From: a virus
IMG/VR virus record: IMGVR_UViG_3300026518_000024
Coordinates: 1 to 39,680 of that record
Length of the DNA stretch: 39,680 bases
Reading direction: 5' to 3' (one strand)
Numbering within the stretch: position 1 is the first letter of the stretch; each line of letters starts with the position of its first letter. Positions 8,072-36,212 of this stretch are shown piece by piece. The notes beneath the pieces are model-generated. The model was given only the letters and a program-made list of their open reading frames with translations. It was not told the origin of the DNA and did no database searches. The translations under genes were made by a program, and so were the position numbers.

Positions 8072-8101
8072 ATATTATTGTGATTGAGCCAGTATTGTCA
8101 A
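8072..8101 (-). promoter_or_regulatory. Sigma70-type promoter of membrane-protein gene
   Basis: On the minus strand TTGACA (8101-8096) and TAATAT (8077-8072) are separated by 18 bases. The -35 lies within the 3' end of the endonuclease gene 8098-9705. The sequence between and around the boxes is nearly identical to the promoter at 9737-9766. Confidence 0.75.
8073..8100 (-). repeat. 28-bp promoter repeat, copy A
   Basis: It matches 9738-9765 at 27 of 28 positions (TATTATTGTGATTGAG, then C or T, then CAGTATTGTCA on the plus strand). The two copies flank the endonuclease gene 8098-9705 as direct repeats. Further downstream both genes share the leader GAGAATTATT before ATG. Confidence 0.9.
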
Positions 8102-9799: not shown

Positions 9800-10597
9800 A
9801 TGTCCGGTGCAGAAATGTTTGAGCCAGTAGAATTGGCAGAGCTTGATCAAGACGGTAAACAACGATTAGAGCGATTATTCTATCATTGTAACACCCTATT
9901 GGGTGGATCGAGTATTCCCGTTCATTTGGAAAAAGTAGATTACATGTTCGCATTCGAAAGTGCATTGCACATGTATAGGACTCGATCCAGCAGAAGTGTC
10001 AACCAGACCTTTGGATTCCTCAAACTAGAACCAAATAAATCCCAGTATACCCTCCACGATAGGATCGATGTGGTCAAGAAAATTGAACGTGGTGGTGGGG
10101 TTCTGGGTGGTGGGGCATTTGAATCTTTTGGTGCAGCCACTGCAAATACGATTCTCAGAGGTGCCACGGGAGGGGCTGGTGCTATTGATTTGGTGACGTA
10201 TGACTTCTTGGCCCAATACCAAGAGACTCTGTCACGGGTATTCGCTACTACAATGAATTTTCATTATCGGAATGAAAACAATACGCTGGTGATTTATCAA
10301 CCCCCCACCGCCGAAGAAACGGTGCTATTGGAAATCTCGGTGTTAAAATCGGTTACAGAGTTATTAAATGACCACTGGTCTTATGAGTGGTTACAGAAGT
10401 ATACATTGGCGGTATCCAAAACCATCTTAGGTGAAATATATAGTCTGATTACATCCCCAATGCCAGGTCCACAGGGCGGGACCACCCTTAAAGGCGACCA
10501 GTTGAAACAGGCTGGGGAACAAGAGAAAGAAAAATTAGAAGATGATCTATTGATCTTTGGGGATAGTAGTGATATCCCGTTGCCTATTAGAGGATAA
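9800..10597 (+). CDS. 13: Neck protein gp13-like (head completion)
   Basis: 265 residues from ATG 9800 (MSGAEMFEPV), preceded by GAGGGAG; a TTG at 9749 extends the frame but lacks a ribosome-binding site. The C-terminus aligns by eye with T4 gp13: WLQKYTLAVSKTILGEI with T4 WVKDYATALAKELNGQI, then the GG-T-x-(K/D)G-x-(Q/R)L turn, an acidic helix and a short hydrophobic end. Mid-protein, TYDFLAQYQETLSRVF and MNFHYRNENNTLVIY match the T4 region around LMGMMQDM and NEQLKVM. With gp14, gp13 forms the neck that closes the filled capsid and receives the tail. In T4, gp14 follows directly; here gp14 is 6.5 kb away. Confidence 0.8.
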   Translation: MSGAEMFEPVELAELDQDGKQRLERLFYHCNTLLGGSSIPVHLEKVDYMFAFESALHMYRTRSSRSVNQTFGFLKLEPNKSQYTLHDRIDVVKKIERGGGVLGGGAFESFGAATANTILRGATGGAGAIDLVTYDFLAQYQETLSRVFATTMNFHYRNENNTLVIYQPPTAEETVLLEISVLKSVTELLNDHWSYEWLQKYTLAVSKTILGEIYSLITSPMPGPQGGTTLKGDQLKQAGEQEKEKLEDDLLIFGDSSDIPLPIRG

Positions 10598-10619
10598 TAT
10601 CAGAAATATAGGAGCATGT

Positions 10620-11933
10620 GTGACTAAAAGGTTAACTACTGAACAATTTATTACACGTGCGATAGGGATACATGGAGCGGCCTTCGGGTATGATAAAGCA
10701 ATCTATCAAAATTGGAATACGCACCTGATCATAATATGTCCGGTTCATGGGGAGTTTAGACAATCACCTAAATCCCATCTGTCAGGTAATGGATGTAATA
10801 AATGTAGAACCCCCATCCATGATGAAACCAGTTTCATCACTGTTGCACAATCGATTCACGGCAAAAAATATGATTATTCTGACGTTGTATATACCAGAAC
10901 TCATGAGTTAGTAACGATATCATGCCCTGATCATGGAAAATTTCAACAAACCCCTCATAATCATATCAGAAGTAGCGGATGCCCAAAATGTGGTTATGAG
11001 GCTCTTGGAAATCTAAAACGATCCACACTCGACAATTTTGTGCAGTCGGCAATAATGACCCATGGTGACGTATATGGTTACGACGATGTGATTTATGTGG
11101 GTAGCGGTAAACCTGTGGTTATATCATGCCCATATCATGGAAAATTTCAACAATCACCGGCAAGTCATCTTTCGGGAACCGGATGCCCAAGGTGTTCACG
11201 CGAGATGATGGGGAACAATTGCACAAAAAGTGGATCATTATTCATTCAACAATCCCGACAAATTCACGGCCACCGATATGATTACTCGATGACTGACTAT
11301 CACAGAGGAAATATACCGGTTACGATTGGATGCCATATTCATGGAGAATTTTCACAAAAGCCGTCAATTCATTTAACTGGTTCTGGGTGCCCTTTATGTG
11401 GTAATGCACGGGCTAGGGACACAATGCGGAAATCTAATACGATTTTTGTAAACGAAGCAAAATTGGTTCATAATAATCGATATCACTATAAGGGGGATTA
11501 TATTAATAATACTTCTATCATTAGTATAATATGTCCAGATCACGGAGAATTCAAACAAATTGCCCGCAATCACCTGTCGGGGAAGGGGTGCCCAAAATGC
11601 ACCCATAATATATCGAAACCATCACAAGCATGGTTAGACTCGTTAGGAATCCCTGATGACTCCGAACATAGAGAAGTGACTAAATTAGTCGGTCGATATT
11701 CCGTGGATGGGTATGATCCTGAAACAAATACGGTGTATGAATTTCAGGGAGATTATTGGCATGGTAATCCAAAAATATATGAATCAAACCAAATGAATAA
11801 ATCAGTAGGCAAAACTCATGGGGAATTATATCAAAAGACGATTGAAAAGAAATCAAAGTTCATTGAGTCCGGATTCAAATATATTGAAATTTGGGAATCT
11901 GAATGGAATGCATTGACATGTGATAAATCTTAG
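10620..11933 (+). CDS. Zinc-repeat homing endonuclease, Vsr-like (EDxHD-type) nuclease
   Basis: 437 residues from GTG 10620 (TKRLTTEQFI), with TAGGAG five bases upstream; a TTG at 10557 would overlap gp13. About five zinc repeats (residues 1-335) each have YDY(S/D), a CP-x-HG-x-F core and a GCP-x-C pair. The C-terminal ~100 residues read VDGYDPETNTVYEF, GDYWHGNP, GELYQKTIEKK and KYIEIWESEW, a Vsr/PD-(D/E)xK fold with D, E, GD and WH in the EDxHD order known from phage homing endonucleases. It sits 22 bases after gp13 and is followed 30 bases later by the ibrB-like gene. It is probably part of the insertion that separated gp13 from gp14. Confidence 0.85.
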   Translation: MTKRLTTEQFITRAIGIHGAAFGYDKAIYQNWNTHLIIICPVHGEFRQSPKSHLSGNGCNKCRTPIHDETSFITVAQSIHGKKYDYSDVVYTRTHELVTISCPDHGKFQQTPHNHIRSSGCPKCGYEALGNLKRSTLDNFVQSAIMTHGDVYGYDDVIYVGSGKPVVISCPYHGKFQQSPASHLSGTGCPRCSREMMGNNCTKSGSLFIQQSRQIHGHRYDYSMTDYHRGNIPVTIGCHIHGEFSQKPSIHLTGSGCPLCGNARARDTMRKSNTIFVNEAKLVHNNRYHYKGDYINNTSIISIICPDHGEFKQIARNHLSGKGCPKCTHNISKPSQAWLDSLGIPDDSEHREVTKLVGRYSVDGYDPETNTVYEFQGDYWHGNPKIYESNQMNKSVGKTHGELYQKTIEKKSKFIESGFKYIEIWESEWNALTCDKS

Positions 11934-11963
11934 TGTATGTGTGCATTCAAACTGGAGGACTGT

Positions 11964-12587
11964 ATGAAAAAATCACATAAAGCGGCTATTACAGAACTAT
12001 TTGGCCAATTTGATCAACTGGACCAAAAACAACGAGTCGAGATATTCAATCTCGTAAGTAAAAAAATACAACAATTGGTGGATATTGATTTTCCTACCGT
12101 TGGTATTCAACTTATCGAGGCCGATAAGATTCGCTCAAATGATTATAACCCCAACAAAGTCGCAAAACCCGAAATGACGCTGCTCCACCATTCTATATCA
12201 AAGGATGGTTTAACAATGCCCGTGGTTGTGGCATCAGGGGATGATCGAGGGGAATATGAGGTTGTTGACGGATTTCACCGGACATCAACCCTCAAGGGTG
12301 ATACTGATCTCATGGAGCGATCTCATGGATATATTCCTGTATCCATATTAGATAAAGGGCTTGATGATCGAATTAGTTCGACAGTGAGACATAATATGGC
12401 ACGGGGGTCACACCAAATTGAATTAACCAGTGCATTAGTAATCTCGTTGACCAAAAACAATTGGACAGATGAAAAACTGGCCAAAGAACTTGGTATGGAC
12501 CCATCTGAAGTATTACGAATGAAACAGGTGTCAGGACTATCTGATATTTTCGGCGATACTAGTGCCTTCTCGGAGGCGTGGGAATAA
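11964..12587 (+). CDS. ibrB: IbrB-like ParB-fold protein
   Basis: 207 residues from ATG 11964, with TGGAGG upstream. The core is VGIQLIEADKIRSNDYNPN, then SISKDGLTMPVVV and YEVVDGFHRTSTL, the ParB/Srx-fold motif in which the (D/E)G-x-HR block binds nucleotide. A helix-turn-helix-like region follows (WTDEKLAKELGMDPSEV). The stop overlaps the start of the next gene (TAATG), so the two are coupled. A ParB-like protein followed by a DUF3440 PAPS-reductase-like protein is the IbrB-IbrA arrangement known from E. coli prophage DNA, where the pair affects immunoglobulin-binding gene expression. The biochemical activity of the pair is not settled. CTPase activity in the ParB fold is possible. Confidence 0.8.
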   Translation: MKKSHKAAITELFGQFDQLDQKQRVEIFNLVSKKIQQLVDIDFPTVGIQLIEADKIRSNDYNPNKVAKPEMTLLHHSISKDGLTMPVVVASGDDRGEYEVVDGFHRTSTLKGDTDLMERSHGYIPVSILDKGLDDRISSTVRHNMARGSHQIELTSALVISLTKNNWTDEKLAKELGMDPSEVLRMKQVSGLSDIFGDTSAFSEAWE

Positions 12588-13843
12588 TGTCAAAAAAATC
12601 ATTCTACGCTAAACGTCCCATTGGCATTGATGTTAATGCGGCTGCTAGACAGCGCATCAATAAGGTATTTGATCATTTTGATAGAACCTGTGTGTCATTT
12701 TCTGGTGGCAAAGATAGTGGAATCCTGCTGAATCTCGTCCTTGAAGAGGCACGAAAACGAAATAAATTGCCCATTGATGTGTTGATCGTTGACTTAGAGG
12801 CACAATATCAACACACGATTGAATTTATAACCCGCATGATTGATACCGATGATGTTCGGGTCCATTGGGTATGTCTTCCCATATCTCTGAGAAATTCCCC
12901 ATCATTGTATCAACCCAAGTGGATATGCTGGGACCCCAAAGATCGAGATAAATGGGTTCGGGAATATCCAGTTCATGAGGGAGTGATCAATGACCCTTCC
13001 CATTTCCCGTTTTTCGTTCATGGCATGGAGTTTGAAGAATTCGTTCCTAAATTTAATCGCTGGTTGGCCAATGATGAACCCGTGGCGTGTTTCGTTGGCA
13101 TTCGTGCAGACGAGTCCATTAATCGCCTACGCACTGTGAAACGCGATGATAAGGCGATGTGGAGAGATTATAAATGGACTACCCAGCTTGATGAGGGGGT
13201 ATATTCGATATTCCCCATCTATGATTGGAAAACCAGAGATATATGGTTGGCCAACAAATCCTTCGGGTGGGATCATAATAAAATCTATGACCTTATGCAT
13301 CAAGCCGGTGTACCGTATGGGGACATGCGCTTGTGCCAGCCATACGGGGATGACCAAAGAAAAGGATTATGGCTTTACCGGATGCTCGAACCCGAGACAT
13401 GGAATAAAATCGTGTCTAGGGTAGAGGGGGTGAATTTTGGTAATCGCTACGCCACCGCCAGTGGGAATATCATGGGGAACATCAAAGTGACGTTGCCTGA
13501 TGGTCACACTTGGAAAAGTTTTACAAAATATCTGTTGCAGTCATTACCACCACCGTTGGAGCAACATTATCGGGAGCGCATATGGTCGCACATGATGTGG
13601 TGGAGACATAATAAAGAGAAAACGGGTGTGCGTAAAATATATGATGCAGGTGACCCCAAACTCGAAAGTAATCGTTCAATTCCGAGTTGGAGGCGAGTGG
13701 CCAAGATGATCCTAAAAAACGATTATTGGGCTAAATCTTTGGGGTTCGCACCCGCTCAGAGTGTTTTGACCAGGTATCGTGGATATGTGGATGATTTTCG
13801 TTTGCAGCGGAAAGAGGAACAAAATGATGTCATGGATGGATAA
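12587..13843 (+). CDS. ibrA: IbrA-like PAPS-reductase-family protein (DUF3440)
   Basis: 418 residues from ATG 12587, overlapping the ibrB stop. The N-terminus holds the PP-loop SFSGGKDSG (about 37-45), which binds ATP or PAPS. Further on are CFVGIRADESINR, then FPIYDWKTRDIW and MRLCQPYGDDQRKGLWLYR, hallmark blocks of the IbrA/DUF3440 branch of the adenosine-phosphosulphate reductase family. DndC of phosphorothioate DNA modification belongs to the same superfamily, but no dnd genes are present here. Length fits the family. With the ParB-like partner it may modify or sense nucleic acid, which is inference. A homing endonuclease begins 3 bases after its stop. Confidence 0.85.
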   Translation: MSKKSFYAKRPIGIDVNAAARQRINKVFDHFDRTCVSFSGGKDSGILLNLVLEEARKRNKLPIDVLIVDLEAQYQHTIEFITRMIDTDDVRVHWVCLPISLRNSPSLYQPKWICWDPKDRDKWVREYPVHEGVINDPSHFPFFVHGMEFEEFVPKFNRWLANDEPVACFVGIRADESINRLRTVKRDDKAMWRDYKWTTQLDEGVYSIFPIYDWKTRDIWLANKSFGWDHNKIYDLMHQAGVPYGDMRLCQPYGDDQRKGLWLYRMLEPETWNKIVSRVEGVNFGNRYATASGNIMGNIKVTLPDGHTWKSFTKYLLQSLPPPLEQHYRERIWSHMMWWRHNKEKTGVRKIYDAGDPKLESNRSIPSWRRVAKMILKNDYWAKSLGFAPAQSVLTRYRGYVDDFRLQRKEEQNDVMDG

Positions 13844-13845
13844 CC

Positions 13846-14769
13846 ATGCGCAAGAAAACGACTGAGGAATATATCGCTTCTGCACGAAAAGTCCATGGTG
13901 ATCGATATGATTACTCCAACACGGTTTATGGGGGAGCCAAGTATAAAATCACTGTGATATGTAAAGATCATGGCGAATTTATCCAACGGGCAAGTCATCA
14001 TTTGTCAGGGCGGGGGTGCTCTAAGTGTTTTTTTGAACATCAAAAGTGGACTACCCATAAATTCATTCAAAAATCTAAAGAGATTCATAAAGATCGATAC
14101 AACTATTCCATCTCTGAATATACGGGCGCTAATGAAAAACTGACAATTATTTGCCCCGATCACGGGGAGTTTTCGCAAACCCCCTCACAGCATATGAGTG
14201 GATCACATTGTCCAATTTGTGCCGCACACCACCGAAATATCAGCCGGACTCATAACACTCAGGATTTTATCCGACGAGCCATGAAGATACATGGAGATAG
14301 ATACGATTATTCTGATAGCGAGTATGTTGGGGCGAAACAACCTATTACTATTAGGTGTAGAATCCATGGTAAGTTTTCACAAACCCCAAGTAATCATACC
14401 AATACATTCAATCCGGCAAATTGCCCAAAATGCGCAGGTAGGGTGTCCAATAAATCCCAAGCATGGCTAACTAGTATTGAAATACCGGATGATGTTGCAC
14501 ACCGCGAAGTGTGTGGATTAATTAAAGGGACAAAAATCACGGTTGATGGATATGATCCTGAAACAAATACTGTATATGAATTTCATGGGGATTATTGGCA
14601 CGGTAATCCGGCAATATATGAATCTGGTGATATCAACCCGTCGGTTGGAAAACCTTATGGCGAATTATATCAGAAAACGCTTGAAAAGAAACAAGCATTT
14701 TTGGATGCAGGATTCAAATATATCGAAATGTGGGAATCTGATTGGACAACTACGGAGTCATGTGTATAA
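13846..14769 (+). CDS. Zinc-repeat homing endonuclease, Vsr-like, copy 1 of tandem pair
   Basis: 307 residues from ATG 13846, 2 bases after the ibrA stop codon, with GGATA as weak ribosome-binding site. Three zinc repeats (about 1-65, 66-132, 133-200) have H-G-D/K-RY(D/N)Y, CKDHGEF, HHLSG and C-x(2)-C. The C-terminus (about 215-300) has TVDGYDPETNTVYEF, GDYWHGNP, GELYQKTLEKK and YIEMWESDW, the same EDxHD/Vsr-type core as the gene at 10620. N- and C-terminal thirds are nearly identical to the next gene at protein and DNA level; the middle differs. It is probably part of the mobile cassette carrying ibrBA. Confidence 0.85.
   Translation: MRKKTTEEYIASARKVHGDRYDYSNTVYGGAKYKITVICKDHGEFIQRASHHLSGRGCSKCFFEHQKWTTHKFIQKSKEIHKDRYNYSISEYTGANEKLTIICPDHGEFSQTPSQHMSGSHCPICAAHHRNISRTHNTQDFIRRAMKIHGDRYDYSDSEYVGAKQPITIRCRIHGKFSQTPSNHTNTFNPANCPKCAGRVSNKSQAWLTSIEIPDDVAHREVCGLIKGTKITVDGYDPETNTVYEFHGDYWHGNPAIYESGDINPSVGKPYGELYQKTLEKKQAFLDAGFKYIEMWESDWTTTESCV
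14647..14740 (+). repeat. 94-bp identical block, copy 1
   Basis: Read base by base, this stretch is identical to 15630-15723. It encodes the catalytic C-terminus of the tandem endonucleases (GKPYGELYQKTLEKK onward). This implies recent duplication or gene conversion. Confidence 0.95.
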
Positions 14770-14831: not shown

Positions 14832-15755
14832 ATGGGTAAACGGAAAACTACTGAGGAATATATCGCCTCTGCACGAAAAGTTCACGGTGATCGATATGAT
14901 TACTCAAACACGGGTTATGTGGGGGCCAAATATAAAATTACTGTGATATGTAAAGATCATGGCGAATTTATCCAACGGGCAAGCCACCATTTGTCGGGAC
15001 AAGGGTGTCCTAAATGCTTTTTTGATTCCATTAGTGCAACTCATGAGGAATTCACAAAACGAGCCATCGCAATACATGGAAATATATATACATATCCTCA
15101 TCCCATGTCGGGCATGCACACTCCGCTGAATATACAATGTAATACTTGTGGACAACACTTTGACATAACACCAAATAATCATTTACGCGGATTTGGGGGA
15201 TGTCCCGTGTGCTTGCCATCGCGTATGTCAGAGATGAATATGTATAGTGTTGATGAATTTATAATGGCTGCACGTGGGGTTCACGGAAAGAAATACGATT
15301 ATACTAAAGTGGATTACATGGGGGCAACGATTCCAGTCATTATCATCTGTCCAACACATGGCGAATTCATACAAGTTCCTAATTATCACACATCTGGTCA
15401 TGGATGCGGTAAATGCCATTTTAAAAAGTCGAATATATCCCAGCGATGGTTGAATGAATTAGGACTGTCTGACGATTATAACCACCGAGAGGTAAAGGGG
15501 TTGATCCCCAATCGGCGGTATGTGGTTGATGGATATGATCCTGAAACAAATACTGTATATGAATTTCATGGAGACTATTGGCATGGGAATCCTCAGATAT
15601 ACAAACCCTCAGACATTAATCCAACTATGGGAAAACCTTATGGCGAATTATATCAGAAAACGCTTGAAAAGAAACAAGCATTTTTGGATGCAGGATTCAA
15701 ATATATCGAAATGTGGGAATCTGCTTGGAATCGTGCATATGAACCACCTGTATAA
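14832..15755 (+). CDS. Zinc-repeat homing endonuclease, Vsr-like, copy 2 of tandem pair
   Basis: 307 residues, starting MGKRKTTEEYIASARKV. The first zinc repeat and the nuclease core (YEFHGDYWHGNP, GELYQKTLEKK, KYIEMWESAW) match the neighbour at 13846 almost exactly. The second and third repeats are different (HPMSGMHTPLNIQ, NTCGQHFDI), so DNA specificity may differ while the cleavage domain is shared. The upstream gap (14770-14831) holds a TTGACA-like box at 14787 but no convincing -10 or ribosome-binding site, so expression is uncertain. The similarity to copy 1 continues a few bases past both stops, so the duplication unit included 3' flank. Confidence 0.85.
   Translation: MGKRKTTEEYIASARKVHGDRYDYSNTGYVGAKYKITVICKDHGEFIQRASHHLSGQGCPKCFFDSISATHEEFTKRAIAIHGNIYTYPHPMSGMHTPLNIQCNTCGQHFDITPNNHLRGFGGCPVCLPSRMSEMNMYSVDEFIMAARGVHGKKYDYTKVDYMGATIPVIIICPTHGEFIQVPNYHTSGHGCGKCHFKKSNISQRWLNELGLSDDYNHREVKGLIPNRRYVVDGYDPETNTVYEFHGDYWHGNPQIYKPSDINPTMGKPYGELYQKTLEKKQAFLDAGFKYIEMWESAWNRAYEPPV
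15630..15723 (+). repeat. 94-bp identical block, copy 2
   Basis: Identical to 14647-14740. See that entry. Confidence 0.95.
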
Positions 15756-15761
15756 AATGCC

Positions 15762-15935
15762 TCATATGGGATTGTGGGAATGGGTGGTATAGATGACCCA
15801 TTTATACATCTGCGCCCAAGAACCCACAGTTGCTTTAGCTGCTGGGTAGTTCACTGTTACATTAGAAAACTGACCCACCGGAGGGTAATTTGCGCCAATT
15901 GGACGTACATCGTCTGGTATATTATGATTATGATC
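15762..15935 (-). pseudogene. Orphan coding remnant without a start codon
   Basis: On the minus strand, frame 15935-15762 lies between a TGA (15938) and a TGA (15764). It reads IPDDVRPIGANYPPVGQ, then FSNVTVNYPAAKATVGSWA and QMYKWVIYTTHS. This composition looks like real protein, yet there is no ATG, GTG or TTG before residue ~20 and no ribosome-binding site. It overlaps by a few bases the stop of the leftward endonuclease at 15928. It is best read as the severed 3' end of a gene broken when the endonuclease inserted. I do not recognise the parent; a virion protein is possible. The rest of the gap 15756-15927 holds nothing else I can see. Confidence 0.45.
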
Positions 15936-17025
15936 TCATTGTTGACTTAAAGTCAGATTCCCACATGCTTATTACTTTAAATTCATGCTCTATGAAAGTG
16001 TCACGTTTGGTTAATGTGCGTTCATACAATTCACCATAGGTTATGCCAGTTGAGGGATTAATGTCTGAGGGTTTGTATATCTGAGGATTCCCATGCCAGT
16101 AATCACCATTAAATTCATACACGGTTTTCGTGATTGGATCATACCCATCAACTGTATAATTCTTCCCTTTAATTAATCCCCCAACCTCACGATGATATGG
16201 GTCGTCGGGTATACCCAATTGGGTTAGCCACGCTTGTGATGCATTAGATATCCGATGATTGCATTTTGGGCACCCGTGGCCGGTAAGGTGATCGCTGGGT
16301 CGTTGTATGAATGGTCCACATTTGGGGCATATTATAGTCACTTTGGTGGTTGCAGAAACATAATTTACTTTGGAATAATCATATTTTTGTCCATGACGTT
16401 TAATAGCCTTATCGATCCAGTCATCGTTATTGCTGGTGATACTAACACTGGCCCGTAATTTTCCACATTTTGGGCACCCTTGCCCTTTTAGATGATTAGT
16501 GGGGGTTTGTGAAAACTTACCATGATCGGGGCAAATGATTTCAATGTGTGTTTTGTTATTGGTGTATTGCACTTGTGAATAATCATATTGACCGTGCACC
16601 AGTGTAGCCGCTTCAACAAAATCGTCAGTAGTTTTGTTATATACCCCCTTGCATTTTGGACACCCGCTCCCTCGTATGTGATCATGTGCAGATTGGTAAA
16701 ATACACCATGATGGTAACACCTAATCGGCAACTTGTGTGAATCGGTGGGGGTGTTCACTTCCGAATAGTCATATCTCGTTCCGTGTGTGTTACCAAATCG
16801 GGTTATCAAATCATGTTTTGGTATGTGGCGGGATTCCATGTGACATGAGGGACACCCACTCCCGCGTAGATGATTACTTGGGGATTGTGAGAAATTCCCA
16901 TGTATTCTGCATCTAATAGTAACCGGAGACGCATTGTTGACATAGACAACATTATCGTAACTATACCGATCATAATGAACGAGGTGTGCTTGGTCTATAA
17001 ACTCGTTGGTAGTTTTGCGCTTCAT
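15928..17025 (-). CDS. Zinc-repeat homing endonuclease, Vsr-like, leftward
   Basis: 365 residues from ATG 17025 (MKRKTTNEFID); a TTG at 17061 extends the frame less plausibly. Four zinc repeats have RYSYDNVVY, CRIHGNFSQSP, NHLRGSGCPSC and similar blocks. The C-terminus has NYTVDGYDPITKTVYEF, GDYWHGNP, GELYERTLTKRD and KVISMWESDF, the same EDxHD/Vsr-type core. It is the only member of the island on the minus strand, tail-to-tail with copy 2 and head-to-head with gp14 (72 bases between starts). A TTGACT box on the minus strand near 17061 may drive it. The start MKRKTT(N/E) is shared with the partial gene at the right edge. Confidence 0.85.
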   Translation of the reverse strand: MKRKTTNEFIDQAHLVHYDRYSYDNVVYVNNASPVTIRCRIHGNFSQSPSNHLRGSGCPSCHMESRHIPKHDLITRFGNTHGTRYDYSEVNTPTDSHKLPIRCYHHGVFYQSAHDHIRGSGCPKCKGVYNKTTDDFVEAATLVHGQYDYSQVQYTNNKTHIEIICPDHGKFSQTPTNHLKGQGCPKCGKLRASVSITSNNDDWIDKAIKRHGQKYDYSKVNYVSATTKVTIICPKCGPFIQRPSDHLTGHGCPKCNHRISNASQAWLTQLGIPDDPYHREVGGLIKGKNYTVDGYDPITKTVYEFNGDYWHGNPQIYKPSDINPSTGITYGELYERTLTKRDTFIEHEFKVISMWESDFKSTMRS

Positions 17026-17072
17026 GTAGATTACTATTTCACATTCCCCGAAACGAGTCAACGATTAACTAC

Positions 17073-19850: not shown

Positions 19851-19879
19851 TTGACAAACGATATTAGGTATGATATAAC
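19851..19879 (+). promoter_or_regulatory. Sigma70-type promoter (TTGACA-17-TATAAC)
   Basis: TTGACA (19851-19856), 17-base spacer, TATAAC (19874-19879), then TAGGAG and ATG 19908. It is one of the best host-type promoters in the window. Confidence 0.85.
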
Positions 19880-19907
19880 TCTTATATACCCATATAGGAG
19901 ATGTCAT

Positions 19908-20624
19908 ATGTTTAATATCAAGGTTCCTGCCCATGTTGAAGACAAGCATGTTGATCGTTATGTTGAGGGTGCCAAACAGCGCATATACTATAATGCACGA
20001 AAGGCTAAATTCAAAAATTGGATTGCAGAAGTCCCCGATGCACAGCGATTGGCTGATTGGCTCGGACAAAATGGTGAATTTTCTGGAAACTGGGTATATC
20101 CAGATGGCACCAATGCCGATGATGCTGAATTTACGGCTGAACATTATCCGGTAGACGATTCTATTGTTTGGGCGTCTCATCCAACCACCCGTGGTATCTG
20201 GGCTGGTGATTTTGGTAGTATTCTGATGGGGATGCGTGATAATCTTGATAAGTATGGGTGGCTGACTGAAAAACAGGCAGATGTTGTTCGTAAGGCATTG
20301 GCCCGTAAAGAGCAGTGGGTAGCTGAGGCGGAGGCCAAGAAAGTAGCTTACCGTGAAGAAAATATGAAATCCCAATGGATCGGGAAAATCAAAGAGCGCC
20401 GCGATTGGGTGCTGACCATTACTAAGGTATTGTCATTTGATGGTCAATGGAATACCCTGTATATTAACCTTATGAAGGACCAAAACGGTAACATCATCGT
20501 CGGTAAAGGCACCAAGCGCTATGGAGATGAGGGTGATACCATTAAGGTTAAAGCTACCATCAAGGCTCATGATGAGCGTGACGGCGTTAAACAGACGGTT
20601 GTTAACCGTCCTAAATTTGGATAA
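19908..20624 (+). CDS. Unknown N-terminal domain + C-terminal OB-type nucleic-acid-binding domain
   Basis: 238 residues from ATG 19908 (MFNIKVPAHVED), with ATAGGAG upstream. The C-terminal ~85 residues (SQWIGKIKERRDWVLTITKV, LYINLMKDQNGNIIVGKG, TIKVKATIKAHDERDGVKQT) match a pattern widespread in phage and plasmid polyvalent proteins. It is G-x-(I/V)-x(2)-R, a strand, D-x-x-G-N, then a final TVK-AH-x(4)-GVKQT strand, and looks like a five-stranded OB fold. The N-terminal part has DWLGQNGEFSGNW and LTEKQADVVRKALAR, both shared with the paralogue at 21612. It has its own sigma70-type promoter, so early expression is likely. It may bind ssDNA or RNA. Confidence 0.7.
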   Translation: MFNIKVPAHVEDKHVDRYVEGAKQRIYYNARKAKFKNWIAEVPDAQRLADWLGQNGEFSGNWVYPDGTNADDAEFTAEHYPVDDSIVWASHPTTRGIWAGDFGSILMGMRDNLDKYGWLTEKQADVVRKALARKEQWVAEAEAKKVAYREENMKSQWIGKIKERRDWVLTITKVLSFDGQWNTLYINLMKDQNGNIIVGKGTKRYGDEGDTIKVKATIKAHDERDGVKQTVVNRPKFG

Positions 20625-20629
20625 TTATA

Positions 20630-21103
20630 ATGAATGACCCAATAGCATTCACCAAAGTCAAACTGCCTTATGGATGGTTAGGTAATATGTCACCCCATAG
20701 AGTGTCCATGTGGGGTGATGAATGGCCTACCGCAGAACATGCATTTCAGGTAGGGCGGTTCCCAGAAGATCATATGCTGCGCACTGGAAATCTCCATCAT
20801 ATTAAGTCACCTATGGAAGCCAAACAAATTGTTCAACATTACCGAAATGATATGGTCATCATGCCGACGTCAGATGAAGATGTTGGGTTGATGCATAACG
20901 TGTTAATGGCCAAATTAGAATATAATGATTGGATGATCGACGAATTACTGATGACTCGTGGATGCAGAATAATCGAAGACGTCACTAAGCGTCCTCACGG
21001 AAATGGATTGTTTTGGGGCGCGGCTTTACAAAATGGTAAATGGGTGGGGGACAATATGCTTGGACAACTATGGATGTCGCTACGGGACGAAGATTGGACT
21101 TGA
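20630..21103 (+). CDS. NADAR/YbiA-family protein (candidate ADP-ribose glycosidase)
   Basis: 157 residues from ATG 20630, 5 bases after the OB gene. Blocks seen: YGWLGNMSPHRV, WPTAEHAFQVGRF (family signature WPT-x-EH-x-FQ, about residues 32-43), IKSPMEAKQI, VLMAKLEYND, LLMTRGCRIIED, then GLFWGAA and NMLGQLWMSLRDE. Length fits the family (about 150-180). The usual D-x(1-2)-WG reads GLFWG here, preceded by HGN. YbiA-type enzymes cleave N-glycosidic bonds. NADAR members reverse guanine-linked ADP-ribosylation of DNA made by DarT1-type toxins, and phage NADARs are reported as anti-DarT factors. Co-transcription with the OB gene and nearness to ART-like domains support a role in ADP-ribose metabolism here. 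Confidence 0.8.
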   Translation: MNDPIAFTKVKLPYGWLGNMSPHRVSMWGDEWPTAEHAFQVGRFPEDHMLRTGNLHHIKSPMEAKQIVQHYRNDMVIMPTSDEDVGLMHNVLMAKLEYNDWMIDELLMTRGCRIIEDVTKRPHGNGLFWGAALQNGKWVGDNMLGQLWMSLRDEDWT

Positions 21104-21611: not shown

Positions 21612-22280
21612 ATGCGACCCACAAATGTTGAAAACCGCCGACGCCCACACACCCTATCAAATCATGAACGCCGTGATCATTATGTTGCCAAGCATAATCG
21701 TGCAGCATGGATCAATCAGTTCCCAGAGGCGTCCACGATTAGCGATTGGTTATATCGGGAGGGAGAGTTTGCTGGACATTGGGAAACCCTACATGGTCAA
21801 CCGATTGATGATTCACAGATTGGTCTTGATGGGATTCCTAATGACCCAAACGCGATATGGTTTGATCATCCCGCTACAGTAGGAATGATGGATGTGCCAG
21901 TGATTAAATCGTTGTTTGACGGTCTTGAGCAATACGGTGCCCTCACCGAAAAACAGACACTATTGGCTCGTAGACTTCTGGCTAATGCAAGAAATAAGGC
22001 AACGCCTGTTGGTAACACCCCATCATCACAGTGGGTAGGAAAGATCAAAGAGCGCCGTAAGTGGGAGTTGACCGTTGATAAAATTCTGTCTTATGAGGGC
22101 AATTATGGCATGTCATATATCAGCATGATGCACGACAAAGATGGTAATACCATTGTAGGTAAAGGGACAAAACGCTTTGGGACAGAGGGAAATACGATCA
22201 CTGTGGTTGCGACTATTATCGATCACACTACTCGTAATGGGGTCAAACAGACGATTATCAATCGTCCCAAAATTGTATAA
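21612..22280 (+). CDS. Paralogue of the OB-domain protein at 19908
   Basis: 222 residues from ATG 21612, with AAGGAGTTACT upstream. The C-terminal half is clearly homologous to 19908-20624: SSQWVGKIKERRKWELTVDK, MSYISMMHDKDGNTIVGKG, TKRFGTEGNTITVVATI, then NGVKQTIINRPK. The N-terminal half also aligns loosely (ISDWLYREGEFAGHWE with LADWLGQNGEFSGNWV; GALTEKQTLLARRLLA with GWLTEKQADVVRKALA). The two genes frame the NADAR gene and each has its own TTGACA promoter, so the pair arose by duplication and both are kept. Probable nucleic-acid-binding OB fold; partner unknown. Confidence 0.7.
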   Translation: MRPTNVENRRRPHTLSNHERRDHYVAKHNRAAWINQFPEASTISDWLYREGEFAGHWETLHGQPIDDSQIGLDGIPNDPNAIWFDHPATVGMMDVPVIKSLFDGLEQYGALTEKQTLLARRLLANARNKATPVGNTPSSQWVGKIKERRKWELTVDKILSYEGNYGMSYISMMHDKDGNTIVGKGTKRFGTEGNTITVVATIIDHTTRNGVKQTIINRPKIV

Positions 22281-23177: not shown

Positions 23178-24011
23178 ATGAACAAAGATGACTTTGGTGA
23201 CCGTATGAAAGCATACGAGAAACACGAGACTGGTAGACATTTTCTTCCTACACTTCCGGTAGTGGCCCGTATCGATGGCCGGAAATTCAGCAGGTTCACA
23301 AAACCATTCAAAAAACCATTCGATAATCGTATATCCGATGCCATGCGGATAACTACACAGAAACTGGTTGAACATACCAATGCCTGCATTGGATATTGCC
23401 AGAGTGACGAAATCACCCTAATTTTCCAGAACCCGCATATTGGTGGTGAAATGTTCTTTAATGGGAAGATTCATAAGCTCACGAGTGTATTGGCAAGTCT
23501 TACCACTGCGTATTTCATCAGGGCATTGGACTCTGAATTGATTAAATCTGTAGATTCTGATGCCTGTATCACGGGGATGATAGGCCATGCGGTCCCCCAT
23601 TTTGACGCTCGGGTTTGGCAAGTTCCATCACAGACTGAGGCTGCTAATGCACTACTGTGGCGGTGTATGGATGCCCAAAAGAATGGAATCAGTTCGGCCT
23701 GTCGTTCAATGTGTTCTGCCAAATCCATGCATGGTAAAAAACAATCTGACATGCTTGATATGATGCACAACAATGGTGTAGATTACTATAATGCATATGA
23801 ACAAAGTGATCGAGTGGGGACCTTTTTTCAGCGAAAAACATATGAGGTGAAACTATCGGACGATATCTGGAATGCGATACCAGACCACCAACGGAGACCG
23901 GAGAACCGCATGGTAACCCGTTCCCGTGTGGAGAATCTTATGCTGGGATCATTCAAGCAATATATCAATCGTGAAGCTATCATCTTTAATGGTGCCACTG
24001 CGAGGATATGA
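23178..24011 (+). CDS. Thg1-like tRNA nucleotidyltransferase
   Basis: 277 residues from ATG 23178, with GGGAGGAAA upstream. It opens MNKDDFGDRMKAYE, usual for bacterial and phage Thg1-like proteins. The palm-domain metal motifs are present: VVARIDGRKFSRFTKPF (first Asp, residue 33) and IGYCQSDEITLIF (SDE, Asp 77 and Glu 78). Later blocks KLTSVLASLTTAYF and PHFDARVWQVPSQTEAANALLWR are also family-typical. Thg1 enzymes add nucleotides 3'-to-5'. Eukaryotic members add G-1 to tRNA-His, and the bacterial/phage-like branch repairs tRNAs truncated at the 5' end. Here it may mend host or phage tRNAs damaged by defence nucleases (inference). It overlaps the following HNH gene. Confidence 0.85.
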   Translation: MNKDDFGDRMKAYEKHETGRHFLPTLPVVARIDGRKFSRFTKPFKKPFDNRISDAMRITTQKLVEHTNACIGYCQSDEITLIFQNPHIGGEMFFNGKIHKLTSVLASLTTAYFIRALDSELIKSVDSDACITGMIGHAVPHFDARVWQVPSQTEAANALLWRCMDAQKNGISSACRSMCSAKSMHGKKQSDMLDMMHNNGVDYYNAYEQSDRVGTFFQRKTYEVKLSDDIWNAIPDHQRRPENRMVTRSRVENLMLGSFKQYINREAIIFNGATARI

Positions 24012-24310
24012 TGATAGATGCAGCAACGGTTGATCTCCCTGTAGATTATAATAATCTGTCAGCAGGAGAACGAAAGATTATCAGAGATCGCTATGTGGTG
24101 GCCCAAAATGGCAAATGCATGCATTGTGGAAAGCATCTATCATTTAAGCCCCCAGCCAAAATTCGGCGATTAGAAATCCAATGGGAAGCCTTTCCGCCTA
24201 ATTTTTTGAAATTCCCAGTGCATCTCCAACATAATCATGATACGGGGTTGACCGAGGGCGCGGTTCATGCGTATTGTAATGCAGTTTTGTGGCAATACCA
24301 CGGTAGATAA
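24011..24310 (+). CDS. Small HNH endonuclease
   Basis: 99 residues; ATG 24011 is chosen over 24008 because GAGG then has a workable spacing. A zinc pair CMHCG (about residue 36) and the end VHLQHNHDTGLTEGAVH plus YCNAVLWQYHG form an HNH/endonuclease VII-like core: HNH-x-TG, G-x-x-H, CN. This compact form with C-terminal LWQYHG is a common phage HNH type. It overlaps Thg1 by one base, which suggests co-expression. It could be a homing endonuclease or a recombination/packaging nuclease. Confidence 0.75.
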   Translation: MIDAATVDLPVDYNNLSAGERKIIRDRYVVAQNGKCMHCGKHLSFKPPAKIRRLEIQWEAFPPNFLKFPVHLQHNHDTGLTEGAVHAYCNAVLWQYHGR

Positions 24311-28772: not shown

Positions 28773-30845
28773 TTGATCAAAACTGATAAATTTGTTGCAA
28801 AAGCGATTGCCAGTCACGGTGATCGCTTTTGTTATGACAAAGTGGACTATCGTGATGCCAAGACCAAGGTGATCATTGGTTGTCCTGATCATGGAGATTT
28901 TTTACAAACCCCCGACGCTCACTCTAGGGGGCAGGGGTGTCCTGCGTGTGGTAAGATTAATAGGGCAGTGTCCAAGCGCAATACCAGTAGTTCTCGTTTT
29001 GTGGCTACTGCTATGGCGTTACATGATGGGCGGTATAATTACGATCAAGTGACTTATACAGGGGTGTATAACAAAGTATCGATAGTATGCGCAGAGCATG
29101 GCGTGTTTGAACAATTACCTGCTAATCATCTGGCAGGTAATGGGTGTCCCAAATGCGCAAACATTAGTAGAACTGAAAATAAGCGTGATACACTAGCTGA
29201 GTTTATTAAAAAGGCTAAAGTTGTTCATAATACCAAATATGGATATGACAAAGTGATTGTGGGATCGCCCAACGAGAAGGTCATTATTGAATGCCCTATC
29301 CACGGGGAGTTTACTAAACTTCGAAGCAAACACATAGCCGGAGAGGGGTGTCCTGCGTGTGGTATTACTGTTGGTCATGACAGACATCGTCTTAGTCTTG
29401 ATGAATTTATCGAGAAATCCCGTAAGGTCCATGGGGATTCATATGATTACTCTAAATCGGTGTATGCAAGTTATCATGATTTGGTATGTATTGTATGCAG
29501 CAGGCATGGGGATTTTTTCCAATCCCCTGCAAATCATTTTGCAGGGCAGGGGTGTCCTAAATGTGGGGTGGGCGCAAGAAGTGGTCCCCGTATAACCAAT
29601 GATGAATTCATCCAACGGGTGACAAAAGTGCATGATGGGAAGTATGACTACAGTGTAACCAATTTTACCGGATCACATAATCAAATTGATATAGTTTGTC
29701 CCATTCATGGACGATTTACACAGATGGCCACGAATCATTTGTCAGGAAAGGGGTGTAATAAGTGTGCAAGGGAGCAGGTTGCGGTCGTGCTTTCTACCAC
29801 ACTGGATGAGTTTGTCATAAAGGCTAATAATGTGCATTCTAATAAATATGATTATTCTAAGATACAGTTTAGGGGGCTAGGTAGTGATGTAGTTATTGTG
29901 TGCCCTGATCACGGTGAGTTTATCCAGAAGCCTAAGAATCATCTGACTGGTCGAGGGTGTAGATTGTGTAGTATTGGTATTTCGCGTGGCGAACGCGAGT
30001 TGGCGTCCTTCATCCAAGAGTTGGGTATTATGACAGCCACTAGTAACCGTTCGATAATCGCTCCATATGAGTTAGATATCGTTGTGCCAGATCAAAAGGT
30101 GGCCATTGAATATTGTGGAAACTACTGGCATAGTCAATTAAATGGGAAATCCCGAAAGTATCATTTGGATAAATTAGAGCTTGCTGAATCACAAGGATAT
30201 CGATTGCTGACGATATTTGAGGATGAGTGGAAAAATCATCAAGGGATTGTTGAGAGTAGGATACGCAACATTTTGGGTAAATCTGACCGTGGCGCTGGTG
30301 CCCGTAAATTGTCCATCCAAGAAGTTGATTACCCAAAGGCTCGTGACTTCTGTAATACCCATCACATACAAGGGACGGCCTCGCATATGTCTATCCGGTA
30401 TGGGGCATTCCATAATGATCAATTGGTGGCAGTGATGACGTTCAATAAGTCTCGGAGGGCATTAGGCGGTGATGGGTCAGTCTATGAATTGGTTCGCTTT
30501 GTCACTGATGGAAAATCCTATGCAGGGATAGCAAGTCGCTTACTGACTACCTTTAGAAAATCATACAGTGGTGATATCATATCCTATGCAGATCGTAGGT
30601 GGTCCGATGGCGGATTGTATAGGTCATTAGGATTTGAAAAGGTTGGACAATCGGTGCCGAATTACTGGTATGTGCATACGTCTGATTATATTACCCGAAA
30701 GCATCGGTATAGGTTTCAGAAGGCTAAAGTGGTGAAACAATTTGATGCTGATCCTAGTATGACTGAATGGGAAATAATGCAATCTAATGGGTATGATCGG
30801 ATTTGGGATTGTGGTAACTATAAGTTCTTACTCAAGGGTAATTGA
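28773..30845 (+). CDS. Zinc-repeat homing endonuclease with Vsr-like nuclease and GNAT-like C-terminal domain
   Basis: 690 residues, apparently from TTG 28773 (MIKTDKFVAKAI), with TTAAGGAT upstream and no ATG near. Six zinc repeats (about 1-410): RFCYDKVDY, CPDHGDFLQTP, GCPACG, and so on. About 420-505 is the nuclease core: APYELDIVVPDQKVAIEYCGN, YWHSQ, YHLDKL, YRLLTIFEDEW. About 515-665 is the GNAT-like part: IRYGAFHNDQLVAVMTF, GIASRLLTTF, ISYADRRWSDGGLY, RSLGFEKVG, then YRFQKAK. The end NGYDRIWDCGNYKF matches the gene at 8098. It is inserted between gp18 and the small late genes. The gap 28672-28772 holds an imperfect inverted repeat (28682-28692 with 28754-28766) covering the ribosome-binding site. 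Confidence 0.82.
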   Translation: MIKTDKFVAKAIASHGDRFCYDKVDYRDAKTKVIIGCPDHGDFLQTPDAHSRGQGCPACGKINRAVSKRNTSSSRFVATAMALHDGRYNYDQVTYTGVYNKVSIVCAEHGVFEQLPANHLAGNGCPKCANISRTENKRDTLAEFIKKAKVVHNTKYGYDKVIVGSPNEKVIIECPIHGEFTKLRSKHIAGEGCPACGITVGHDRHRLSLDEFIEKSRKVHGDSYDYSKSVYASYHDLVCIVCSRHGDFFQSPANHFAGQGCPKCGVGARSGPRITNDEFIQRVTKVHDGKYDYSVTNFTGSHNQIDIVCPIHGRFTQMATNHLSGKGCNKCAREQVAVVLSTTLDEFVIKANNVHSNKYDYSKIQFRGLGSDVVIVCPDHGEFIQKPKNHLTGRGCRLCSIGISRGERELASFIQELGIMTATSNRSIIAPYELDIVVPDQKVAIEYCGNYWHSQLNGKSRKYHLDKLELAESQGYRLLTIFEDEWKNHQGIVESRIRNILGKSDRGAGARKLSIQEVDYPKARDFCNTHHIQGTASHMSIRYGAFHNDQLVAVMTFNKSRRALGGDGSVYELVRFVTDGKSYAGIASRLLTTFRKSYSGDIISYADRRWSDGGLYRSLGFEKVGQSVPNYWYVHTSDYITRKHRYRFQKAKVVKQFDADPSMTEWEIMQSNGYDRIWDCGNYKFLLKGN

Positions 30846-34374: not shown

Positions 34375-35592
34375 ATGTCAGTCAAGATCGGATCAAGAAA
34401 TGGATGGCCCCATACAAATTTCGGCATGGAGATGCGAGGCACCCAGACCGATGATAGTGGTATCCGGCAATCTATAGTATACCCAAGACGAAAATATACA
34501 TTTTTGGTGGAATTCCTTTTTAATAACCATGCATTATTACCAGTGAGTTTATCAACGGATTTACCAAAGCATATTCACAACGGTAGGTTATTAACCACGT
34601 TACGGAGTATTGATCACCCCAAAGCCACGATGGTCACTGAAACACTAAATTCCTATAATAAAAAGGTCATTATTCCTAAAAAAATGGAATATTCTCCTGC
34701 TACCATGACGTTCCATGATGATAACACATCGGTTGCTCTATCACTGTGGCGGGAATATAGAGCATTTTATCAATACGAGGGGAGGATTGGTAAAAATTCA
34801 GTAGACGCTGGTAATCCCAATAATAATCCCATTGGTGAATTTAGGAATGGTAATGCCCTCGTGGGTGATGATGTAAGGTCTAGTTATGAAGCCTTACCGA
34901 GTATGGGTATGACATTGAAGCCCAATGATGGGAGGCACTTTTTTGATGCCATCCGAATTTACGATCTTGGTTCTGATCCTGATAGTGTCAACGTGTATAC
35001 GTTCCTTCATCCGGTGATTAACTCATTTGATCATGATAATTTGGACTACGAGGATCGTGATGGAGTAGTCGGGGCAACGATGACCTTTGAATATGAAGGG
35101 TATTATCATTTAGTTGGATTGAATAATGCTGCGTTTTCCGAGATTATTGAAGAGCAGCTAGGGGTGCGACCCAATGGAAATTCAGGACGGGTTGAAGGTC
35201 ATGCTGTGATGGAAGGGCTAACCAACCCTGACGTATTCGACCCAGACTTGGGTAATGGGTTTCCGGTTGATTCTGGATCACTCGTGGACCCCCTCGCTGG
35301 GGTTATTGGGACGTCTGCGGATACAGTATCGTTTCCAGTAACACCATTCCCGCCAGTGACCCCTATTACCGCCACTCCACTGCCTACACTATTACCTACA
35401 TTGCCTAATACTACAGGCACATTACCAAGATCACCAGTGGTGACATCTAGGATACCTGCGCTACCGTCTAATCTCCCACCAACTCCCCGACTAGCAGACA
35501 CCATCGGGACATCGCCCCCCGCTGGCGGTAATGGGAGCTTAACTGAAGCTGAGGTACAGGATTTGCTATCAAGAACATTGGGAAGAATATAA
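34375..35592 (+). CDS. Tail-tube-fold protein, gp54/gp48-like (baseplate tube initiator) with proline-rich tail
   Basis: 405 residues from ATG 34375 (MSVKIGSRNGWPHTNFGMEM), with TAGGGAA upstream; the frame stays open further upstream, but that is antisense to bS21. Residues about 40-270 read as a tube fold: RRKYTFLVEFLFN, TLRSIDHPKATMVTETL, YSPATMTFHDDNTSVALSLWREY, YTFLHPVINSFDHDNLDYED, VGATMTFEYEGY. The MTFHDD block parallels that of gp19 here. Residues about 310-395 are Pro/Thr/Ser-rich and probably flexible. Tube-fold proteins other than gp19 in T4 are gp48 and gp54, which start tube assembly on the baseplate; which of the two this is cannot be told. The stop overlaps the gp4 start. Confidence 0.65.
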   Translation: MSVKIGSRNGWPHTNFGMEMRGTQTDDSGIRQSIVYPRRKYTFLVEFLFNNHALLPVSLSTDLPKHIHNGRLLTTLRSIDHPKATMVTETLNSYNKKVIIPKKMEYSPATMTFHDDNTSVALSLWREYRAFYQYEGRIGKNSVDAGNPNNNPIGEFRNGNALVGDDVRSSYEALPSMGMTLKPNDGRHFFDAIRIYDLGSDPDSVNVYTFLHPVINSFDHDNLDYEDRDGVVGATMTFEYEGYYHLVGLNNAAFSEIIEEQLGVRPNGNSGRVEGHAVMEGLTNPDVFDPDLGNGFPVDSGSLVDPLAGVIGTSADTVSFPVTPFPPVTPITATPLPTLLPTLPNTTGTLPRSPVVTSRIPALPSNLPPTPRLADTIGTSPPAGGNGSLTEAEVQDLLSRTLGRI

Positions 35593-36212
35593 TGGCAAAG
35601 TATAGGACATATAGTTATGATCCCACAAATCCTGAAAAATATAAGGGTGAGACCATTCCGGTTGTTTTGAAATCATCATGGGAGCTTGAGTTCGCCAAAC
35701 ATTGTGATCTTTTACCCAGTGTTTTATCATGGGCATACGAAATCACACAGATTCCATATCGCGACCCAATCACGAATAAACAAAAAATCTACATACCGGA
35801 TTTCTTTGTGAAAGTTGCTCAATCCGATGGGTATGCAATTGATTATGTATTTGAGATTAAACCCATGCATGAGCAATTGGATAATCATGCCCGAAATAGA
35901 CAGGACGCTGCATTGGTTGCCCGAAATAATGCTAAATGGGCAGCGGCCTCGATGTGGGCTGATCGACATTCAGCAATATTCGAAGTGATAAATGAAAATG
36001 ATATTTTTGGTGGGTATAGTAACAAGACCGGAAGGAAGCATCCAGTTGCTACATTCAGTCATACCCACTCAACTAAGCCTATAAGCAAGAAGACGCGAAA
36101 GGTGACTCAAAAACGTTTCGCAGGTAAGAAGAAACCACTAGAAAATCGATCACGCGTGGGTAAGGTTGGAGGTAGAAAAATATCTAAGTCGGCAAGGATA
36201 CAAAAGCGATGA
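35592..36212 (+). CDS. 4: Head completion protein gp4-like
   Basis: 206 residues from ATG 35592 (TAATG overlap). The N-terminal ~150 residues follow T4 gp4: YDPTNPEKYKGET, LKSSWELEFAKHCDLLPSVLSWAYE (T4 FRSLWELKFMRYCDTSKAVIKWGSE), IPYRDPITNKQKIYIPDFFVKV (T4 IPYISPLDNKVHRYFPDFFVMV), VFEIKPMHE, then AKWAAASMWADRH. The E...PDF...EIK series is a TnsA-type PD-(D/E)xK core, fitting a nuclease that trims DNA ends or closes the packaged head. The basic C-terminus of ~55 residues (KKTRKVTQKRFAGKKK) is additional. It overlaps the next gene (ATGA). Confidence 0.88.
   Translation: MAKYRTYSYDPTNPEKYKGETIPVVLKSSWELEFAKHCDLLPSVLSWAYEITQIPYRDPITNKQKIYIPDFFVKVAQSDGYAIDYVFEIKPMHEQLDNHARNRQDAALVARNNAKWAAASMWADRHSAIFEVINENDIFGGYSNKTGRKHPVATFSHTHSTKPISKKTRKVTQKRFAGKKKPLENRSRVGKVGGRKISKSARIQKR

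What the first reader, a model, noticed from the sequence alone, without database searches (positions are those of the whole stretch)
23178..24011. Phage Thg1-like 3'-to-5' nucleotidyltransferase
Seen: full-length protein with IDGRKF and SDE metal motifs intact, in an accessory block with HNH, OB and NADAR genes. Known: bacterial-type Thg1-like proteins repair 5'-truncated tRNAs by reverse-direction polymerisation. Inference: it may restore tRNAs cut by host anticodon or acceptor-stem nucleases. No tRNA gene is seen in the window, so its substrate is probably host tRNA or phage tRNA elsewhere.
Basis: partly seen in the sequence, partly recalled or inferred. Interest (0 to 1): 0.6.

Follow-up and report, generated by a model that had tools for sequence, protein, structure and literature searches.

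The report
Phage enzyme repairing tRNA 5' ends
A large bacterial virus carries an intact Thg1-like protein, an enzyme that adds nucleotides backwards onto the 5' ends of tRNAs; this is a new member of a family already known in such viruses, and the standard database name 'tRNA-His guanylyltransferase' very probably misdescribes what it does here.

Summary
Window 23178-24011(+) encodes an intact 277-aa Thg1-like protein (TLP): Pfam Thg1 2.1e-31, PHROG 4717 2.8e-69, closest structure the Bacillus thuringiensis TLP. Every metal, activation and transfer residue is present. The anticodon-reading HINNLYN motif of true Thg1 is absent, so it is TLP-type. It belongs to a phage-only clade; relatives occur in 126 phage records and in at least 576 candidate IMG/VR stretches, so the kind is known, and phage RNA repair was already proposed in 2010 and 2021.

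What I add is a test of the substrate. Relatives in the window's clade are tRNA-rich jumbo phages (41-51 tRNAs on three long contigs). Their tRNA genes have normal acceptor stems (mismatches no commoner than in TLP-negative phages) and never overlap, so encoded 5' editing is not supported. Their tRNAHis genes lack G-1 and carry A73 or U73, so templated G-1 addition is not plausible. Almost all complete TLP-positive phages examined also encode RlaP and an RNA ligase, although controls are too few for significance.

Most likely it restores 5' nucleotides to damaged phage or host tRNAs. Which nuclease does the damage is unknown. New member of a known kind, moderate to low interest.

The parts
23178..24011 (+). 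Thg1-like protein (TLP), 277 aa, 3'-to-5' nucleotidyltransferase
23268..23276 (+). R31 (nucleotidyl transfer) and D33 (metal)
   Evidence: invariant in 101 of 101 phage and 78 of 78 bacterial relatives; roles from PMC3701042
23313..23315 (+). K46, activation-step lysine position (K or R in the family)
23403..23411 (+). S76-D77-E78 (activation serine, metal carboxylates)
   Evidence: invariant
23475..23477 (+). K100, nucleotidyl transfer
   Evidence: invariant in phages
23610..23612 (+). R145, nucleotidyl transfer
   Evidence: invariant in phages
23679..23684 (+). K168-N169: place of the Thg1 HINNLYN motif; His replaced by Lys, activation Asn kept
   Evidence: meaning of the motif from PMC6471195
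22850..23176 (+). Small ORF directly upstream (stop 1 nt before the TLP start), no known domain
24008..24310 (+). Endonuclease VII/HNH-like small protein overlapping the TLP stop by 4 nt; not seen beside the TLP in the closest relatives, probably not part of the function
20630..21103 (+). NADAR-domain protein, kept upstream of the TLP in L022 and L023 (context; functional link unproven)

Best explanation
The gene encodes an active Thg1-like 3'-to-5' polymerase that restores missing 5' nucleotides to tRNAs during infection. It would activate the tRNA's 5' phosphate with a nucleotide triphosphate, then add nucleotides backwards, copying the 3' side of the acceptor stem until the stem is whole. 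Likely substrates are the phage's own large tRNA set and host tRNAs shortened by nucleases. It would work alongside phage RNA ligase, RlaP and, in some relatives, a polynucleotide-kinase-like protein. Shown here: the protein's identity, its complete active site, its TLP type, and the tRNA-rich, RNA-repair-rich genomes of its relatives. Inferred: activity, tRNA as substrate, and damage as the reason.
For: All mechanistic residues intact and invariant across phage relatives, bar K/R at position 46; confident TLP fold. The three long contigs of the window's clade carry 41-51 tRNAs, and 16 of 17 complete TLP-positive phages carry 5-58. RlaP in 15 of 17 and RNA ligase in 16 of 17; the clade's three long contigs all have a ligase and two have RlaP. 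A P-loop ORF overlaps the TLP start in the closest relative L022; AAA_33 kinase-like genes lie directly upstream of several bacterial TLPs, as PMC2904730 reported. The tRNA genes need no 5' editing, and tRNAHis in this clade permits no templated G-1. All bacterial and archaeal TLPs tested so far prefer 5'-truncated tRNAs (PMC6471195).
Against: No RNA-repair partner or tRNA lies in the window itself. The RlaP and ligase co-occurrence is not significant against my five controls (3 of 5 each). The TLP is not consistently next to tRNAs or repair genes. 201phi2-1 has a TLP but no tRNA. No known defence nuclease is tied to 5'-end loss here.
Confidence: 0.66

Rival explanations
1. It is a tRNAHis guanylyltransferase that adds G-1 to tRNAHis, as databases name it.
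For: PHROG and GenBank names; bacterial TLPs can add G-1 in vitro to C73 tRNAHis (PMC6471195).
Against: HINNLYN anticodon motif absent. In the window's clade the four phage tRNAHis genes lack G-1 and have A73 or U73, so templated addition is not possible; C. crescentus tRNAHis itself lacks G-1 (PMC3875453). In the TLP-positive phages whose tRNAHis follows the usual bacterial pattern, G-1 is already encoded.
Confidence: 0.06
2. It edits phage tRNAs whose genes encode faulty or overlapping 5' ends, as in Dictyostelium mitochondria.
For: TLP genes sometimes sit inside tRNA arrays (L007, L064, L088, L096).
Against: Positions 1-3 mismatch no more often than in TLP-negative phages (1.7 against 1.5 per cent of positions; window's clade: 2 in 408 positions). 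No overlap in 567 adjacent tRNA pairs, nor in 126 of the clade.
Confidence: 0.04
3. It acts on RNAs other than tRNA, for example mRNA or small-RNA 5' ends, or on a host signalling RNA.
For: DdiTLP4 acts on non-tRNA RNAs (PMC6471195); 201phi2-1 has a TLP but no tRNA gene; the TLP is not linked to tRNA loci in most genomes.
Against: tRNA-rich genomes in nearly all carriers; tested bacterial TLPs favour tRNA (PMC6471195).
Confidence: 0.17
4. It is an inherited passenger with no role that matters in infection.
For: Patchy presence among phages; an HNH-like gene inserted next to it.
Against: Active site invariant across 101 phage proteins of mostly 35-50 per cent identity; same genomic position kept in L022 and L023 at about 50 per cent identity.
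Confidence: 0.07

Closest known systems
Bacillus thuringiensis TLP (PDB 4kgk/4kgm)
   Same: Fold, metal carboxylates, activation and transfer residues, TLP type
   Different: 23-29 per cent identity in the structural alignments; cellular enzyme
Phage TLPs of PHROG 4717: DSS3_MAL1, Phaeobacter MD18, CcrPW, CBB, GAP32, 201phi2-1
   Same: Same family, 36-46 per cent identity, same residues
   Different: Different genomic neighbourhoods; most lie in other subclades
IMG/VR contigs L022 (53 per cent) and L023 (50 per cent)
   Same: Same clade and same position between NADAR and the tail-sheath stabiliser
   Different: L022 has a P-loop ORF overlapping the TLP start; the window has an unrelated small ORF there
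Eukaryotic Thg1
   Same: Palm and finger fold, catalytic residues
   Different: Window protein lacks HINNLYN; not expected to read the GUG anticodon

Membership tests
Thg1/TLP superfamily | Homology over the catalytic domain above the curated cut-off | tested here: met
   Pfam PF04446 109 bits against 29.2
Thg1/TLP superfamily | Two-metal carboxylates D, D, E | tested here: met
   D33, D77, E78 invariant
Thg1/TLP superfamily | Activation residues (K44, S75, N161 of yeast) and transfer residues (R27, K96, R133) | tested here: met
   K46, S76, N169; R31, K100, R145; roles from PMC3701042
Thg1/TLP superfamily | 3'-to-5' nucleotide addition | not testable with these tools
   needs an enzyme assay
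Thg1 proper (tRNAHis guanylyltransferase) | HINNLYN motif with anticodon-stacking His | tested here: not met
   KNGISSA, Lys at the His position
Thg1 proper (tRNAHis guanylyltransferase) | A tRNAHis that needs G-1 | tested here: inconclusive
   clade tRNAHis genes have A73 or U73 and no G-1, as in hosts that do not use G-1 (PMC3875453); seen in relatives, while the window's own tRNAs and host are unknown
TLP (bacterial/archaeal type) | Groups with bacterial TLPs; closest structure a TLP | tested here: met
   no eukaryotic Thg1 was placed in the tree
TLP (bacterial/archaeal type) | Repairs 5'-truncated tRNA | not testable with these tools
   needs an enzyme assay
TLP-kinase operon (PMC2904730) | Polynucleotide-kinase-family gene next to the TLP | tested here: not met
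   no kinase found in the window; present in some relatives

The most novel reading that the evidence does not exclude
tRNA-rich jumbo phages keep a TLP as the 5' half of a tRNA-end maintenance system (with RlaP, RNA ligase and sometimes a 5' kinase) that keeps their own 40-58 tRNAs and the host's tRNAs usable against an as yet undescribed host nuclease that trims or cuts tRNA 5' ends.
Probability: 0.2. Interest if true: 0.6.

Novelty: new member of a known kind. Interest (0 to 1): 0.3.

Why it matters
The natural substrate of bacterial TLPs is unsettled (PMC6471195). Phages with a TLP are a tractable place to settle it, because the gene can be deleted and tRNA 5' ends read directly. The comparison here already narrows the choice: in this clade encoded 5' editing and templated tRNAHis G-1 addition do not fit, which leaves repair of damage or a non-tRNA role. 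It also suggests that the widely propagated name 'tRNA-His guanylyltransferase' is wrong for these phage proteins.

Tried and rejected
A first count of acceptor-stem mismatches seemed to show 5' mismatches with a leading T in L096 and L064. This was my parser misreading ARAGORN's 8-bp stems (U-1:A73 taken as 1:72); Infernal alignments show paired stems, and corrected counts show no enrichment. A single-sequence scan of IMG/VR found nothing; the alignment-based scan worked. Search for a constant neighbour: none in more than 6 TLP groups within 4 kb, so linkage to ligase, RlaP or tRNA is not a general rule; several recurrent neighbours are DNA polymerase B or transposases. RlaP and ligase presence in TLP-positive against TLP-negative phages: direction as expected, too few controls. 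PADLOC gave nothing for the TLP.

Full report
The finding is real. Window 23178-24011(+) is a complete 277-aa reading frame behind a good ribosome-binding sequence. It matches Pfam Thg1 (2.1e-31) and PHROG 4717 (2.8e-69). Its nearest solved relative is the Bacillus thuringiensis Thg1-like protein (TLP) 4kgk (2.4e-21). A profile built from 65 relatives without it gives 346 bits against 5.7 for the best of 500 shuffles. The predicted structure is confident (mean pLDDT 93.9) and matches bacterial TLP 4kgm best (E 1.8e-17).

The active site is complete. Using residue roles from PMC3701042, the window protein has the metal carboxylates (D33, D77, E78), the activation residues (K46, S76, N169) and the transfer residues (R31, K100, R145). 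All but K46 (Lys or Arg in the family) are invariant across 101 phage proteins. The eukaryotic HINNLYN motif, whose His reads the tRNAHis anticodon (PMC6471195), is KNGISSA here. It is therefore TLP-type and not Thg1 proper.

It is not rare. 126 GenBank phage records carry a homologue, all under 60 per cent identical, and at least 576 candidate stretches in IMG/VR do. In a FastTree tree of 179 proteins the window falls in a phage-only clade (support 98; ten phages plus the window), nearest L022 and L023. Those two keep the same order around the gene: NADAR upstream, tail-sheath stabiliser and sheath downstream. So the gene is a settled part of this jumbo-phage lineage. The wider tree mixes phage and bacterial branches (at least nine label changes forced by well-supported branches), which indicates repeated exchange.

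The window is a 39,680-base IMG/VR fragment. It has a T4-type layout (terminase, tail sheath, tube, gp15-like stabiliser) and no tRNA. Its relatives show what the rest of such a genome holds. The contigs of L023 (375,937 bp), L083 (282,855 bp) and L067 (195,338 bp) carry 51, 51 and 41 tRNA matches. All three have an RNA ligase and two have RlaP. Among 17 complete TLP-positive phage records, 16 have 5-58 tRNAs, 15 have RlaP and 16 have an RNA ligase. The exception for tRNAs is 201phi2-1, with none. Five TLP-negative phages have RlaP in 3 and ligase in 3; the difference is in the expected direction but the control is too small to count.

I then asked what the substrate could be. If the TLP completed tRNAs whose genes encode bad 5' ends, the carriers' tRNA genes should show 5' mismatches. 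They do not: 1.7 per cent of positions 1-3 in 427 tRNAs of TLP-positive phages against 1.5 per cent in 68 of TLP-negative phages; in the window's clade two mismatches at positions 1-3 in 136 tRNAs. If it repaired ends lost to overlapping genes, tRNA genes should overlap. None of 567 adjacent pairs did (all loci then held), nor any of 126 in the clade. If it added G-1 to tRNAHis, the phage tRNAHis should lack G-1 and have C73. In the clade all four tRNAHis genes lack G-1, and they have A73 (three) or U73 (one). TLPs add Watson-Crick paired nucleotides and do not act efficiently on A73 tRNAHis (PMC6471195). Some alpha-proteobacteria, including C. crescentus, use a G-1-less tRNAHis (PMC6471195, PMC3875453), and the nearest named phages infect alpha-proteobacteria, so a host of that kind is likely. 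That host assignment is an inference. In TLP-positive phages with the usual tRNAHis pattern, G-1 is already encoded.

What remains best is repair of damaged 5' ends. This is what all tested bacterial and archaeal TLPs prefer in vitro (PMC6471195), and what PMC2904730 (2010) and PMC7824862 (2021) proposed for phages. Gene context agrees in part. PMC2904730 reported a polynucleotide-kinase-family gene next to bacterial TLPs; I recover AAA_33 kinase-like genes directly upstream in several bacterial loci (L115, L117, L134, L147, L154). In the closest relative of the window, L022, a 122-aa ORF with a P-loop (GLPASGKT) overlaps the TLP start by one base; Pfam does not name it. L066 has RlaP, an AAA_33 kinase and the TLP in a row; L013 and L097 have RlaP and RNA ligase nearby. 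These are examples and not a rule: no neighbour recurs in more than six groups within 4 kb, and the window has no such partner.

Limits. No activity was tested. The host and the nuclease are unknown. The tRNA comparison uses partial tRNA sets for some genomes, and ARAGORN favours paired stems, which lowers all mismatch counts alike. The tree is a fast one and holds no eukaryotic Thg1. The NADAR neighbour is a possible counter-defence gene in its own right: NADARs remove ADP-ribose from guanine in DNA and RNA (PMC11125620, PMC11833690). Its link to the TLP is positional only.

Verdict: a real, intact phage TLP, a new member of a known kind, probably a tRNA 5'-end repair enzyme and probably not a tRNAHis guanylyltransferase.

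Noticed in passing
window 8098-9705(-), 10557-11933(+), 13846-14769(+), 14832-15755(+), 15928-17061(-), 28773-30845(+): Six proteins with DUF723/DUF4379 treble-clef zinc-finger repeats in 39.7 kb; the last matches HNH/homing-endonuclease PHROGs and sits between tail sheath and tail tube genes. L022 carries several relatives too.
   Followed up: partly
window 11937-13843(+): ParB-like gene followed by a PAPS-reductase/DUF3440 gene, an IbrAB-like pair (the IbrAB comparison is from memory).
   Followed up: no
window 10557-12587(+): The DUF723 protein ends in TAG at 11933 and the same frame runs on 217 codons through the ParB-like gene; three relatives' contigs carry a CUA-anticodon tRNA, so amber readthrough is conceivable.
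   Followed up: no
L215, L219, L222, L095: tRNA genes with CUA anticodon (called tRNA-Pyl by ARAGORN) in TLP-positive phages, one on each long contig of the window's clade.
   Followed up: no
window 20630-21103(+): NADAR protein, syntenic in L022 and L023; resembles an NCBIfam NADAR anti-phage protein far below its cut-off.
   Followed up: partly
window 19851-20624(+) and 21612-22280(+): Two paralogous genes of unknown function (PHROG 27218/2319/3628) on either side of the NADAR gene.
   Followed up: no
window 35592-36212(+): TnsA-like endonuclease N-terminal domain near the terminase end of the window.
   Followed up: no
L209, L210: tRNAHis of TLP-negative phages KVP40 and Aeh1 has C73 but T at -1, so G-1 is not encoded, although gamma-proteobacterial hosts are expected to use it (host expectation from general knowledge).
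   Followed up: no
L096:14165-14292(+): Sub-threshold match to YrlA Y RNA (47.6 bits, cut-off 69) inside a tRNA array beside the TLP.
   Followed up: no
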